From positions 806,001-870,000 of the forward strand of contig NZ_CP041659.1 in NCBI RefSeq assembly GCF_007998985.1: a stretch of DNA of 64,000 bases, given 5' to 3'. This DNA is from Sphingomonas xanthus (lineage in GTDB: Bacteria > Pseudomonadota > Alphaproteobacteria > Sphingomonadales > Sphingomonadaceae). A program made the translations under genes and the position numbers. Positions 48,068-51,351 of this stretch are shown piece by piece. Under the pieces are notes generated by a model, which was not told where the DNA came from, ran no database searches, and saw only the letters and a list, made by a program, of their open reading frames with translations. Every line of letters starts with the position of its first letter. Position 1 is the stretch's first letter.

Positions 48068-48095
48068 TTGGACAGCCGCACCTTGCGAACATAAA
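48068..48095 (+). promoter_or_regulatory. Probable promoter of the radical SAM gene, giving a near-leaderless mRNA
   Basis: TTGGAC (48068-48073) and CATAAA (48090-48095) are separated by 16 bases. The expected transcription start is about 48102, one or two bases before the ATG at 48104, and no clear ribosome binding site precedes that ATG. The LexA-type box overlaps the -10. Confidence 0.4.
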
Positions 48096-48101
48096 GTGAA
48101 C
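48087..48101 (+). promoter_or_regulatory. LexA-type SOS box before the radical SAM gene
   Basis: GAACATAAAGTGAAC is an exact GAAC-N7-GAAC direct repeat, the reverse complement of the alphaproteobacterial LexA box GTTC-N7-GTTC. It sits on the putative -10 and ends two bases before the start codon, a position suited to repression. Confidence 0.7.
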
Positions 48102-48103
48102 GC

Positions 48104-49345
48104 ATGGCGCAACTCGATACAAGGCAGAAATTGGCGATTCTCGCTGACGCCGCCAAATATGACGCGTCCTGCGCTTCGTCAGGATCGACCAGACGCGACA
48201 GCCGGGGCGGCAAAGGCGTCGGATCGACCGAGGGCATGGGGATCTGCCACGCCTATGCCCCCGACGGGCGCTGCATCAGCCTGCTCAAGATCCTGTTGAC
48301 CAACAGCTGCATTTTCGACTGCCATTATTGCATCAACCGCAAGAGCTCGAACGTGCGCCGCGCCCGGTTCACGGTCGAAGAAGTCGTCCACCTCACTTTG
48401 TCCTTCTACAAGCGCAACTATATCGAGGGCCTGTTCCTTTCGAGCGGCATTATTCGCAGCAGCAATTACACGATGGAGCAATTGGTCGAGGTTGCCCGGC
48501 AGCTGCGCGACGTTCACGATTTTCGCGGCTATATCCACCTCAAGACGATCCCTGACGCCGACCCCGAACTGGTGCACCAGGCCGGGCTTTACGCCGATCG
48601 CGTATCCATCAATGTCGAGCTTCCGACCGAGGCCGGGCTTTCCCGGCTCGCCCCCGAAAAGGACGGGCGGCGGATCGAAGGCGCGATGCGGGACATGAAG
48701 GGCGCGATCGACGATGGGCGCGACGCTCGCCGCAAATACCGCAGCGCGCCAAAGTTCGCGCCGGGCGGTCAGTCGACGCAGATGATCGTCGGGGCAGACG
48801 AGGCGAGCGACGGCGACATCGTGGTCCGGGCAAGCCAGCTATACGACCGCTTCTCGCTTCGGCGCGTTTATTATAGCGCCTTTTCTCCAATCCCGGACGC
48901 CAGCGCGGTCCTGCCGCTGAAACGACCGCCTTTGCTGCGCGAACACAGGCTGTATCAATCCGACTGGTTGATCCGCTTTTACGGATTTAAGCCGAAGGAG
49001 GTCGTTGCTGCGACCGAAGACGGCATGTTGCCCCTCGACATCGATCCCAAGCTCGCCTGGGCGCTCAAGTTTCGCGAACAGTTTCCGGTGGACATCAATC
49101 GAGCCGGGCGCGAGCAATTGCTGCGAATCCCGGGGCTCGGCACCAAGGCCGTCGGCCGAATTCTCACAAGTCGTCGTTGGCGCAAGATAACGCTCGATGA
49201 CGTCGCGAGGCTGACGGTCAGCATTGCCAGGGTGCGGCCCTTCATCGTCACGGCCGACTGGCGGCCGACCTTGCTAACCGATCGCGCCGATCTGCGCACC
49301 CTCGTCGCTCCACGCGAACAGCAATTGAACCTCTTCGCTGCCTGA
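48104..49345 (+). CDS. Putative DNA modification/repair radical SAM protein
   Basis: A 413-residue radical SAM enzyme. The 4Fe-4S cluster motif CX3CX2C is C69, C73 and C76 (NSCIFDCHYCINRK). An N-terminal segment (KYDASCASSGSTRR) and GICHAYAPDGRCISLLKILL precede it. The C-terminus carries helix-hairpin-helix DNA-binding sequence (DINRAGREQLLRIPGLGTKA, then VGRIL). This fits the family known as 'putative DNA modification/repair radical SAM protein' (as in TIGR03916), which is usually found beside DUF4130/UdgX genes, as here. The reaction is unknown. A LexA-type box lies directly before the start. Confidence 0.93.
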   Translation: MAQLDTRQKLAILADAAKYDASCASSGSTRRDSRGGKGVGSTEGMGICHAYAPDGRCISLLKILLTNSCIFDCHYCINRKSSNVRRARFTVEEVVHLTLSFYKRNYIEGLFLSSGIIRSSNYTMEQLVEVARQLRDVHDFRGYIHLKTIPDADPELVHQAGLYADRVSINVELPTEAGLSRLAPEKDGRRIEGAMRDMKGAIDDGRDARRKYRSAPKFAPGGQSTQMIVGADEASDGDIVVRASQLYDRFSLRRVYYSAFSPIPDASAVLPLKRPPLLREHRLYQSDWLIRFYGFKPKEVVAATEDGMLPLDIDPKLAWALKFREQFPVDINRAGREQLLRIPGLGTKAVGRILTSRRWRKITLDDVARLTVSIARVRPFIVTADWRPTLLTDRADLRTLVAPREQQLNLFAA

Positions 49346-49378
49346 ACCGTTTCGCCGGCACGAAGGAGGAGAAGCGCG

Positions 49379-49882
49379 ATGGATATTTTCGAGCGGCTTA
49401 AACAGGATCACAACCGGCACCGCGAACTGATCGACAAGATCAAGGCAACCAGCGGCGACAGCGAGGAACGGCGTACGCTGTTCGAACAGTTCAAGACCGA
49501 TGCCATGGCCCATGCCGCGGCGGAGGAAGGCACGCTTTACGCAACGATGATGGAGGATCCCGAGATCCGCCAGGACGCGCAGCACAGCGTCAAGGAACAT
49601 GCCGATATCGGCATGTTGTTCGTCGAACTGGATGAAATGGACATGAGCTCATCGGGCTGGCTCAACAAGTTCAACAGCCTTGCCGACGAATATGCCCACC
49701 ATATTGACGAGGAAGAAGAGGAGAAATTCGCCAAGGCCCAAGAAGAAATCGACGAGGCCACGGCGGAGCGATTGGCGAGCGTGTTCGAGGAGCGCAAGCC
49801 GGTCGAGGTTGAGCGGGTTGTCGAAGGCAAGGATGTCGACGAGATCAAGCACGCCATCGCGGAAGAGGAAGGCAGCAAATAG
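49379..49882 (+). CDS. Hemerythrin/HHE domain protein
   Basis: A 167-residue helical protein. The first 110 residues fit an HHE di-iron domain: LKQDHNRHRELIDKI, HAAAEEGTLYATM, VKEHADIGMLFVELD, DEYAHHIDEEEEE. A charged tail (about 120-165) follows. It lies between the radical SAM gene and the DUF4130-UdgX gene, 33 bases after the first and two bases before the second, so co-expression is likely. It might bind oxygen, sense redox state or protect or repair iron-sulfur clusters; none of this is shown. Confidence 0.88.
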   Translation: MDIFERLKQDHNRHRELIDKIKATSGDSEERRTLFEQFKTDAMAHAAAEEGTLYATMMEDPEIRQDAQHSVKEHADIGMLFVELDEMDMSSSGWLNKFNSLADEYAHHIDEEEEEKFAKAQEEIDEATAERLASVFEERKPVEVERVVEGKDVDEIKHAIAEEEGSK

Positions 49883-49884
49883 TC

Positions 49885-51351
49885 ATGCCATCGTCGGAGC
49901 CGACACTCGGGGCCTATCAGGTCCGCCTGTCGGCCCCCGACGATTTCGACGGCTGGCGTGCCGCCGCGCGCGGACTGGCGGAGGCGGGTGTGCCGGCCGC
50001 TGCCGTCAGTTGGGCGGTAGAGGGCGAGGGCGGCGACCTGTTCGCCCTTGGGGCGCCGCCTCCCCCGCTGCGCCCCCCTGGATTCGCCGTCCCGCGCGAA
50101 TTCCTGAGTCTCGCCGAGGCCGCCATTTGTCACCGCAACCCCGAACGTTTTGCGCTGCTTTACATGCTCCTGCTCAGGTTGCGGGAAAACCGCAATGCGC
50201 TGGAGGACCGGGCGGACCCCCTGGTCGACCGGCTCGATGCGATGGCAAAGGAAGTACGGCGGGACGCGCACAAGATGCATGCCTTCGTGCGCTTCCGCGA
50301 AGTCGAGGACAGCGAAGGCGCCCGGTTCGTCGCCTGGTTTGAACCCGATCACCATATCGTCCGGCGTGAAGCGGGATTTTTCCAGCGCCGCTTCTCCAAT
50401 ATGCGCTGGTCGATTCTGACCCCCGAGCTGACCATCCACTGGGATGGCCGGGAGCTTAGCGAGGGACCAGGAGCGAGCCAGGCCGAGGCGCCGGACGGAG
50501 ACCCGGTCGAGGCCATATGGCAGACCTATTATGCCAGCATTTTCAATCCCGCCCGGGTCAAGGTGAAAGCCATGACGAAGGAAATGCCCAAAAAATATTG
50601 GCGCAACATGCCGGAGACCGCGCTTATCAGCGGGCTGCTGGCCGGCGCTCAGGCCCGGGAGGCAGCGATGATCGACTTAAGCCGCCATAAAGGCCCCGCC
50701 CAGCCGGTAGCCGACCGGCCTTCGCCATCAGGCGCGGGCAGCAACCTTGCCGCCGCCTGGCAGGCGCTCAAGGCCGACGCGCTTCGGTGCACTCGCTGCG
50801 ACCTTTACCGCTGCGCGACGCAGACAGTGTTCGGAGAAGGCCCGCTCAATGCTTCAATCTTGTTCCTGGGAGAACAGCCGGGCGACCAGGAAGACCTGGC
50901 TGGCCGCCCCTTTGTCGGCCCGGCCGGGGAGCTGTTCAACGCGGCGCTTGCCGAGGCGGGGATCGACCGGGAGCGGGCCTATGTCACCAACGCGGTCAAA
51001 CATTTCAAATTCGTCCAGCGCGGCAAGAGGCGCGTGCACAGCAAGCCGGACGCGGGTGAGATCGAGGCCTGCCGCTGGTGGCTGGAACAGGAGCGCGAGC
51101 TTATCCGGCCGCCGCTGACGGTGGCACTTGGGGCGACCGCGGCCCGATCATTGTTCGGCAAGGCCGTGACCATCCGCGCAATGCGCGGCTCCCCGCATGC
51201 GCTGGCAGACGGCAGCGAATGCTGGGTAACGGTCCACCCCAGCTTCCTTCTCCGCCTGCCCGGCGAGGAGGCCAGGGCCAGCGAGCGGCAGCGCTTCGTT
51301 GATGACCTCAGCAGAGTCCGCGACCGCGCCGCCGAGCTTGCCGGGCGCTAG
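49885..51351 (+). CDS. udgX: DUF4130-UdgX fusion, uracil-DNA cross-linking protein
   Basis: A 488-residue fusion. Residues about 1-265 are the DUF4130 part (CHRNPERFALLYMLLLRL; RRDAHKMHAFVRF; WFEPDHHIV). Residues about 290-485 are UdgX, a family-4-like uracil-DNA glycosylase: motif A GEQPGDQEDLAGRPFVGPAG, the UdgX-specific loop GKRRVHSK with H385, and motif B HPSFLLR. In mycobacterial UdgX the loop histidine forms a covalent bond to the abasic sugar. Cluster ligands may be C302, C305, C396 and H373. The stop overlaps the convergent TonB receptor stop by three bases. Confidence 0.93.
   Translation: MPSSEPTLGAYQVRLSAPDDFDGWRAAARGLAEAGVPAAAVSWAVEGEGGDLFALGAPPPPLRPPGFAVPREFLSLAEAAICHRNPERFALLYMLLLRLRENRNALEDRADPLVDRLDAMAKEVRRDAHKMHAFVRFREVEDSEGARFVAWFEPDHHIVRREAGFFQRRFSNMRWSILTPELTIHWDGRELSEGPGASQAEAPDGDPVEAIWQTYYASIFNPARVKVKAMTKEMPKKYWRNMPETALISGLLAGAQAREAAMIDLSRHKGPAQPVADRPSPSGAGSNLAAAWQALKADALRCTRCDLYRCATQTVFGEGPLNASILFLGEQPGDQEDLAGRPFVGPAGELFNAALAEAGIDRERAYVTNAVKHFKFVQRGKRRVHSKPDAGEIEACRWWLEQERELIRPPLTVALGATAARSLFGKAVTIRAMRGSPHALADGSECWVTVHPSFLLRLPGEEARASERQRFVDDLSRVRDRAAELAGR

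What the first reader, a model, noticed from the sequence alone, without database searches (positions are those of the whole stretch)
48068..51351. LexA-box-headed radical SAM, hemerythrin and DUF4130-UdgX cluster: a candidate undescribed DNA repair system
Three same-strand genes with short gaps (33 and 2 bases) encode a radical SAM enzyme with a DNA-binding helix-hairpin-helix tail, an HHE di-iron protein and a DUF4130-UdgX fusion. An exact GAAC-N7-GAAC element sits at the start of the first. The radical SAM and DUF4130-UdgX pairing is known by families but its reaction is not; SOS control would tie it to damage response. A radical enzyme acting on DNA together with a protein that can bind covalently to a damage site suggests a handling or protection pathway for modified or abasic bases.
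Basis: partly seen in the sequence, partly recalled or inferred. Interest (0 to 1): 0.78.

Follow-up and report, generated by a model that had tools for sequence, protein, structure and literature searches.

The report
SOS-switched radical SAM DNA repair operon
A bacterial operon encoding a radical enzyme and a protein predicted to trap uracil in DNA appears to be switched on by the classic DNA-damage alarm, and the enzyme carries a tail that should dock it onto the replication machinery; the pair is a known family whose chemistry is still unknown.

Summary
Three same-strand genes encode a TIGR03916 radical SAM enzyme, a hemerythrin-like HHE protein and a DUF4130-UdgX fusion (gaps 33 and 2 bases). 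The LexA-type element GAAC-N7-GAAC lies at -17 to -3 of the first ATG. It is real: present there in 30 of 30 loci of the window's genus, in 79 of 80 named Sphingomonadales loci and in 21 of 22 loci across the class, and it also stands before lexA, recA and uvrA in the same genome. Outside the class, 19 of 23 proteobacterial loci carry the E. coli-type box CTGT-N8-ACAG instead: SOS control was kept while the motif changed. The box covers the -10 of a promoter that predicts a leaderless mRNA.

New here: the enzyme ends in a sliding-clamp-binding-like motif (QLNLF). The strict form is in 147 of 158 relatives, against 2 of 529 background ORFs.

Corrections: SOS control of a UDG pair filed as COG1573-COG4277, which I take to be this one, is already reported, and HHE is a local accessory. 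Best reading: an SOS-induced, clamp-tethered radical SAM/DUF4130 lesion-processing module. The reaction remains unknown.

The parts
48069..48074 (+). predicted -35 hexamer TGGACA
   Evidence: Lies in the conserved TTGRC-like block at -35..-31 of 56 deduplicated Sphingomonadales promoters (T-35 .89, G-33 .88, C-31 .86); the 17 nt to the -10 hold little information at -29..-18, the rest being the operator's first bases; window letters
48087..48101 (+). LexA-type operator GAACATAAAGTGAAC (GAAC-N7-GAAC), -17..-3 of the ATG
   Evidence: same motif before lexA in 27 of 30 loci
48092..48097 (+). predicted -10 hexamer TAAAGT inside the operator; predicted start site at or next to the A of the ATG (leaderless mRNA)
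   Evidence: T-12 and A-11 invariant, T-10 .75, A-9 .84 in 56 upstreams; SD-like word in 10 of 56; inferred
48104..49345 (+). radical SAM protein, 413 aa, TIGR03916
   Evidence: 570.4 bits against cut-off 343.5
48308..48331 (+). CX3CX2C cluster motif CIFDCHYC (C69, C73, C76)
   Evidence: invariant in 20 alphaproteobacterial sequences and in 9 of 9 sequences from five phyla and one phage contig
48170..48274 (+). stretch with three further conserved cysteines C23, C48, C57 (possible second metal site)
   Evidence: invariant in 20 of 20 and present in 8 of 9; metal binding is inferred
49127..49165 (+). helix-hairpin-helix core IPGLGTKAVGRIL
   Evidence: Pfam HHH_3 17.9 bits, below cut-off; model pLDDT 81-94 by blocks over residues 321-390
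49322..49336 (+). C-terminal QLNLF, sliding-clamp-binding-like motif
   Evidence: strict motif in 147 of 158 relatives against 2 of 529 ORFs; Q407 and L408 invariant in 9 of 9 with unrelated linkers
49379..49882 (+). hemerythrin-like HHE protein, 167 aa, lineage-specific accessory
   Evidence: Pfam PF01814 56.7 bits; between rSAM and DUF4130 in 29 of 80 named loci
49885..51351 (+). DUF4130-UdgX fusion, 488 aa
   Evidence: TIGR03915 and TIGR03914 over cut-off
49933..50619 (+). DUF4130 / TIGR03915 domain (residues 17-245)
   Evidence: AlphaFold2 model mean pLDDT 83.9
50623..51315 (+). UdgX domain (residues 247-477); GEQPG 50869-50883, KRRVH 51025-51039, HPSFLLR 51235-51255

Best explanation
This is an SOS operon for a replication-coupled DNA lesion-processing module. 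LexA sits on an operator that covers the -10 element and blocks transcription; RecA-driven LexA cleavage releases a leaderless transcript that starts at the ATG of the radical SAM gene (promoter logic: strong comparative evidence; binding and start site inferred). The radical SAM enzyme is held on the beta sliding clamp by its C-terminal QLNLF tail and on DNA by its HhH (motifs shown; binding inferred). With its obligate partner DUF4130 it uses a 5'-deoxyadenosyl radical to reverse or rearrange a base lesion that stalls or follows the fork (inferred). The optional UdgX domain excises uracil in the same stretch of DNA and holds the resulting abasic site covalently through the His of KRRVH, so that it is not broken before recombination or resynthesis (chemistry from characterised UdgX; role here inferred). 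HHE is a local add-on that may handle iron or oxygen for the oxygen-sensitive enzyme (speculative).
For: LexA box: 30 of 30, 79 of 80, 21 of 22 loci and 24 of 25 further alpha loci, while the bases between the -35 block and the box carry little information. Motif switch: 19 of 23 non-alpha loci carry CTGT-N8-ACAG and 0 of 23 the alpha box; 0 of 25 alpha loci carry the coli box. Same-genome controls: GAAC-N7-GAAC before lexA, recA, uvrA, rmuC and radA. Obligate pair: of 289 class genomes, TIGR03916 is over cut-off in 22 and TIGR03915 in 23; all 22 are shared, on the same strand within 0.7 kb; the 23rd keeps a 65-bit C-terminal piece of the radical SAM gene. Clamp motif. UdgX nucleophile: GEQPG and the R-loop His in 15 of 15 fused members; 166.5 bits to solved UdgX (6iod).
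Against: No binding, induction or activity was measured. The clamp consensus (QL[S/D]LF, UmuC QLNLF) is recalled, not from a call, and short motifs can be chance; the relaxed pattern occurs in 29 of 529 background ORFs. Most GAAC-N7-GAAC sites of the genome do not stand before SOS genes, and the genome total exceeds the reversed control pattern only slightly (71 against 58). Six of 23 DUF4130 genomes have no UdgX over the cut-off, so the uracil trap cannot be the core reaction. No family match to spore photoproduct lyase and no close solved relative, so 'lesion reversal' rests on family context only. The radical SAM model is poor (pLDDT 61.8).
Confidence: 0.55

Rival explanations
1. Abasic-site shield: the main actor is UdgX, which crosslinks to uracil/abasic sites at stalled forks (functionally like SRAP/HMCES); radical SAM + DUF4130 resolve that crosslink or prepare the site.
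For: UdgX active-site motifs retained; published proposal that UdgX protects AP sites and that its complexes are resolved by RecA-dependent pathways or proteases (PMC10359453, passages); SOS and clamp features fit fork work.
Against: UdgX is absent over cut-off in 6 of 23 DUF4130 genomes and present without DUF4130 in 13 others; in the Parabacteroides locus the TIGR03915 gene is annotated as a separate 765-base gene.
Confidence: 0.15
2. DNA modification, not repair: the radical SAM enzyme installs or edits a base modification during SOS and UdgX reads or polices it.
For: NCBIfam name 'DNA modification/repair'; Aravind et al. 2013 suggested modification of thymines (PMC3765255, passages); copies on plasmids and in phage records.
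Against: Tight damage control would be unusual for a housekeeping modification.
Confidence: 0.15
3. Spore-photoproduct-lyase-like direct reversal of a UV dimer.
For: Radical SAM + DNA context; a second radical SAM gene (PA0069 family, L005) in the same genome also has a LexA-type site, 24 bases from its start.
Against: No SPL family hit by NCBIfam or Pfam; SPL needs no DUF4130 partner (recalled); Foldseek's best rows are HydE, LIAS, TsrM and biotin synthase, on a poor model.
Confidence: 0.1
4. The box is not LexA's: another regulator or chance repeats explain it.
For: The pattern alone is common (71 exact sites in the genome against 58 for the reversed control pattern).
Against: Position-specific conservation, and replacement by the E. 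coli-type LexA box outside the class.
Confidence: 0.03

Closest known systems
COG1573-COG4277 LexA-regulated UDG two-gene operon (Bacteroidetes, Verrucomicrobia, Alphaproteobacteria/Caulobacter)
   Same: UDG-type gene paired with a partner gene under LexA; PMC8565304 passages state regulation in Bacteroidetes and cite Verrucomicrobia and Alphaproteobacteria (reference 65 is the Caulobacter SOS regulon). The Caulobacter control genome rings for TIGR03916, TIGR03915 and TIGR03914.
   Different: COG4277 = TIGR03916 is recalled; the Verrucomicrobia and Caulobacter papers were not held. I saw no mention of a clamp motif or leaderless layout in the passages read; the HHE insertion is local.
UdgX (Mycobacterium smegmatis, PDB 6IOD/6AJO)
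   Same: GEQPG, KRRxH loop with the covalent His, motif B
   Different: Fused to DUF4130; motif B has F/Y (14 of 15 fused members) where the published UdgX consensus has S/A
SplB / PA0069-type radical SAM repair proteins
   Same: Radical SAM, linked to DNA repair, LexA sites predicted for splB (PMC3323433, passages)
   Different: Different family by profile; conserved C23/C48/C57, HhH and clamp-like tail here; obligate DUF4130 partner
Clamp-binding translesion proteins (UmuC, ImuB, DinB)
   Same: Clamp-like motif and SOS control; the window's pentapeptide equals the UmuC motif as I recall it
   Different: A radical SAM enzyme, not a polymerase

Membership tests
TIGR03916 rSAM_link_UDG | score over curated cut-off and CX3CX2C | tested here: met
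   570.4 vs 343.5 bits; C69/C73/C76
TIGR03915 / DUF4130 | score over curated cut-off; genomic pairing with TIGR03916 | tested here: met
   212.6 vs 112.25; 22 of 22 TIGR03916 genomes of the class sample have it within 0.7 kb
UdgX (TIGR03914) | score over cut-off; GEQPG; KRRxH loop with His | tested here: met
   316.2 vs 189.95; motifs at residues 329-333 and 381-385
UdgX | covalent bond to abasic DNA after uracil excision | not testable with these tools
   biochemical
LexA (SOS) regulon | conserved LexA motif in the promoter | tested here: met
   motif before lexA in 27 of 30
LexA (SOS) regulon | LexA binding and RecA-dependent induction | not testable with these tools
   experimental
Sliding-clamp client | QL[S/D]LF-type motif in an exposed tail | tested here: met
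   147 of 158 strict, 157 of 158 relaxed; background 2 and 29 of 529; tail residues 392-413 have pLDDT under 50, as a flexible tail would. Consensus recalled
Sliding-clamp client | binding to DnaN | not testable with these tools
   experimental
Spore photoproduct lyase / SplB | profile match to the SPL family | tested here: not met
   no SPL model among NCBIfam or Pfam hits at E <= 0.01
PA2171 ribosome-binding persister protein (for the HHE gene) | score over curated cut-off | tested here: not met
   40.8 vs 190 bits
Known anti-phage defence system (PADLOC) | profile match | tested here: not met
   0 families for three proteins at E <= 0.01
DHH/DHHA1 (RecJ-like) fold for DUF4130 | clear structural match | tested here: inconclusive

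The most novel reading that the evidence does not exclude
TIGR03916/DUF4130 is a sliding-clamp-tethered radical SAM DNA repair machine, a class not described so far as I know: SOS puts a [4Fe-4S] enzyme (perhaps with a second metal site at C23/C48/C57) onto the clamp, where with DUF4130 it chemically reverses or rearranges a fork-blocking base lesion, while UdgX, when fused, covalently guards uracil/abasic sites in the same stretch.
Probability: 0.35. Interest if true: 0.85.

Novelty: new member of a known kind. Interest (0 to 1): 0.58.

Why it matters
The radical SAM/DUF4130 pair is widespread (TIGR03916 over cut-off in 22 of 289 sampled class genomes and 103 of 397 sampled phylum genomes), yet I know of no established reaction for it. 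Retention of SOS control through a change of LexA motif shows that damage induction is part of its job. The clamp-like tail gives a concrete, cheap test of where it acts, and points the search for the substrate to lesions met at or behind the replication fork.

Tried and rejected
HHE as a core part: rejected. It is between the genes in 29 of 80 named loci (2 more, cut at contig ends, have it after the radical SAM gene) and in the genus behind the radical SAM gene in 10 of 30 loci. It needs 8 changes on an 81-row quick tree, of which well-supported branches force 2 (there only HHE genes within 300 bases of the radical SAM gene were counted), and 0 of 48 further proteobacterial loci had a match. 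The other intervening ORFs are mostly one-offs.

UdgX as the core reaction: rejected (see rivals). SPL, PA2171 and defence-system membership: not met. PHROGs gave only a weak radical SAM match, 22.3 bits.

Cys-DUF4130 link: the Gemmatirosa relative lacks the three cysteines and a detectable DUF4130 neighbour, but the phage contig L231 also shows no DUF4130 nearby and keeps the cysteines, so I draw no rule from it.

Literature: 'clamp-binding motif' with 'radical SAM' 0 papers; family names 2 papers, one on UdgX biochemistry and one on Chloroflexota genomes (listing); 'UdgX' with 'radical SAM' 0; TIGR03916 or DUF4130 1. Only open-licence PMC papers were searched, so 'not in print' is not shown.

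Own checks that could mislead. One search used the 72 named loci with the box exactly at -17 and 80 bases upstream (56 after deduplication), so its GAAC columns are invariant by choice; the -35 block and T-12/A-11 are not. One search saw 50 loci or stretches for other sites plus the lexA locus, not all 71 sites; 20 of the stretches were chosen with a leaning to A/T-rich spacers. It printed 41 sites near an ORF start, and I took 8 to NCBIfam because I recognised their N-termini; the rest look unrelated or spurious. UvrA and RmuC scored below their cut-offs (both pieces run to the end of the stretch). The background ORFs were picked by length, so some are shadow ORFs on other frames; one search recognised only 53 radical SAM genes in the 80 loci. 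The relaxed patterns differ. The 158 loci may hold a species twice. Start codons were chosen by alignment, so box distances may be off by a few codons. One search left out the 12 sub-cut-off matches. In one search I took 21 of the 35 over-cut-off non-alpha genomes, spread over families without sight of their promoters, plus two plasmid-borne loci; the 25 alpha loci are those newly handed out. A2 holds 20 of the 23 DUF4130 proteins. In one search one of the three misses (L062, near a contig end) is my script picking the wrong ORF. Loci without an exact box: L100 (one mismatch), L175, L255 (alpha); L253, L291, L292, L297 (non-alpha).
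Full report
What is there. Three + strand ORFs lie at 48104-49345 (413 aa), 49379-49882 (167 aa) and 49885-51351 (488 aa), with gaps of 33 and 2 bases. Profile searches give TIGR03916 'putative DNA modification/repair radical SAM protein' (570.4 bits, cut-off 343.5), a Pfam hemerythrin domain (56.7, cut-off 25.3), and TIGR03915/DUF4130 plus TIGR03914/UdgX (212.6 and 316.2 bits, both over cut-off). GAACATAAAGTGAAC lies at 48087-48101, two bases before the first ATG. 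The window is part of a 2.2 Mb single-contig genome; named relatives of the radical SAM protein are mostly Sphingomonas and Sphingomicrobium.

Is the LexA box real? In the window alone it is not remarkable: 2 matches against 1.71 expected. Genome-wide there are 71 exact sites against 58 for the reversed control pattern. Conservation settles it. Of 61 related genomes searched, 31 have the radical SAM gene: 30 of 37 in the genus and 1 of 24 in other families of the order. All 30 loci that were handed out, all from the genus, carry GAAC-N7-GAAC at -17 (29) or -18 (1) of the start. Of 80 named Sphingomonadales loci, 79 carry it (-17 in 72, -18 in 4, -19 in 2, -30 in 1), and the one left, L100, has a single mismatch. 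Across the class, 21 of 22 loci with a full-score gene carry it within about 60 bases (this set includes the window's own locus); a further set gave 24 of 25.

Controls. lexA itself has the motif upstream in 27 of 30 loci. In the window's own genome I looked at about 51 of the 71 sites; 41 lie near an ORF start, most of them at unrelated or doubtful ORFs, but among them are lexA, recA, uvrA, rmuC, radA, a PA0069-family radical SAM gene, a cytosine methyltransferase and pdeM (site inside its first codons). Among 23 proteobacterial loci outside the class, 19 carry CTGT-N8-ACAG, the E. coli-type LexA box (consensus recalled), at -15 to -56, and none the alpha box, while 0 of 25 alpha loci carry the coli box. 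SOS control has thus outlived a change of the LexA motif.

Promoter layout. I took the named loci with the box at -17 and deduplicated them to 56. Apart from the GAAC columns, which are invariant by that choice, information is concentrated in a TTGRC-like block at -35 to -31 and in T-12, A-11, T-10, A-9 inside the operator, a TATA-like -10 at 17-nt spacing; -29 to -18 holds little. A start site 6-7 bases after the -10 hexamer falls on the A of the ATG. Only 10 of 56 have an SD-like word in -20 to -4, whereas the window's HHE and DUF4130-UdgX genes have purine-rich SD-like stretches before their starts (AGGAGG and GGAAGG). I infer a leaderless mRNA with LexA on the core promoter. This layout is typical of this order; in several other alphas the box lies further upstream.

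What belongs together. In 289 class genomes (at least 90% complete), TIGR03916 is over cut-off in 22 and TIGR03915 in 23; all 22 are shared, on the same strand within 0.7 kb, and the 23rd retains only a 65-bit C-terminal piece of the radical SAM gene. UdgX is over cut-off in 17 of these 23 genomes, in two of them at another place, and in 13 genomes without DUF4130. HHE lies between the two genes in 29 of 80 named Sphingomonadales loci, needs 8 changes on a tree of 81 radical SAM proteins, and was found in 0 of 48 other proteobacterial loci. The core is therefore radical SAM + DUF4130; UdgX is a frequent and HHE a local add-on.

The radical SAM protein ends in QLNLF. A strict pattern Q[LM]x[LM][FLIWA] occurs in the last 45 residues of 147 of 158 relatives, a relaxed one in 157 of 158; the same windows of 529 background ORFs give 2 and 29. 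In the last 16 residues the background is 0 of 529 for the strict pattern and for a slightly tighter relaxed one (some background ORFs are shadow frames). In nine sequences from five phyla and a phage contig, nothing after F380 is invariant except Q407 and L408, although the linkers differ in length and sequence. Examples are QLSLF (Subdoligranulum), QLKLF (Fusobacterium), QLILPF (Parabacteroides), QLSLW (Gemmatirosa). From memory, this is the bacterial sliding-clamp-binding motif, and QLNLF is the motif of UmuC. A search for 'clamp-binding motif' with 'radical SAM' returned no paper.

Active-site anatomy. CX3CX2C is invariant; three more cysteines, C23, C48 and C57, are invariant in 20 of 20 alphas and present in 8 of 9 sequences across phyla, Gemmatirosa being the exception. 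I suggest a second metal site, untested because the model was poor. The UdgX domain keeps GEQPG and the nucleophilic His of the R-loop (KRRVH); in 15 fused members the His is always present, while motif B reads HPS(Y/F) in 14 of 15 where the published UdgX consensus is HPS(S/A). DUF4130 yields a good model (83.9) without a convincing known fold; RecJ/Cdc45-type DHH proteins dominate weak matches.

What is already known. Aravind et al. 2013 linked DUF4130 to SplB-like radical SAM enzymes and uracil-DNA glycosylases and suggested a possible modification of thymines (PMC3765255, passages). The Bacteroidetes LexA paper lists a COG1573-COG4277 UDG operon as SOS-regulated there and cites the same for Verrucomicrobia and Alphaproteobacteria (PMC8565304, passages, and part of its reference list). 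I take COG4277 to be this radical SAM family from memory. The cited papers were not held. So the SOS link as such is not new. My calls add its near-universal conservation in the class sample, the motif switch outside it, the leaderless layout in Sphingomonadales, the clamp-like tail, and the demotion of HHE.

Most likely mechanism. SOS derepression; leaderless translation of the radical SAM protein first; recruitment to the clamp by its tail; radical chemistry with DUF4130 on a base lesion; and, where fused, UdgX holding uracil/abasic sites. Promoter logic and motifs are shown by comparison; every binding and chemical step is inferred. I put 0.55 on this account as a whole, over 0.95 on SOS control, about 0.75 on clamp binding, and much less on any particular lesion.

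Noticed in passing
49316-49330: A second exact GAAC-N7-GAAC lies inside the radical SAM gene and encodes EQQLN, overlapping the codons of the clamp-like motif; most named relatives have QLELF instead (65 of 102), so it looks like a codon coincidence.
   Followed up: partly
L233 (G000:C1:1709656): A DNA cytosine-5-methyltransferase gene (TIGR00675) has GAACATAACAGGAAC 32 bases before its start: a possible SOS-controlled methyltransferase.
   Followed up: no
L005 (G000:C1:103169) and L238 (G000:C1:931737): A PA0069-family radical SAM gene has a LexA-type site 24 bases before its start, and the ligase-associated endonuclease gene pdeM has one within its first codons.
   Followed up: no
L063, L072 and other lexA loci: lexA promoters in the window's genus carry one or two overlapping GTTC-N7-GTTC copies, opposite in orientation to the radical SAM box and further from the start.
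   Followed up: no
H61-H70, L231, L279, L280: Relatives of the radical SAM gene occur in 10 phage records, 2 IMG/VR contigs and 158 plasmid records. The phage contig L231 has sequences close to the Gram-positive LexA box upstream (box recalled).
   Followed up: partly
G212:C1:4828899-4829965: One class genome keeps DUF4130 beside a remnant of the radical SAM gene (65-bit C-terminal match only).
   Followed up: no
L230 (Gemmatirosa kalamazoonensis): A 35%-identical relative lacks C23/C48/C57 and a detectable DUF4130 neighbour but keeps QLSLW: perhaps a sister family.
   Followed up: partly
49933-50619: The predicted DUF4130 fold resembles RecJ/Cdc45/DHH proteins weakly but consistently.
   Followed up: partly
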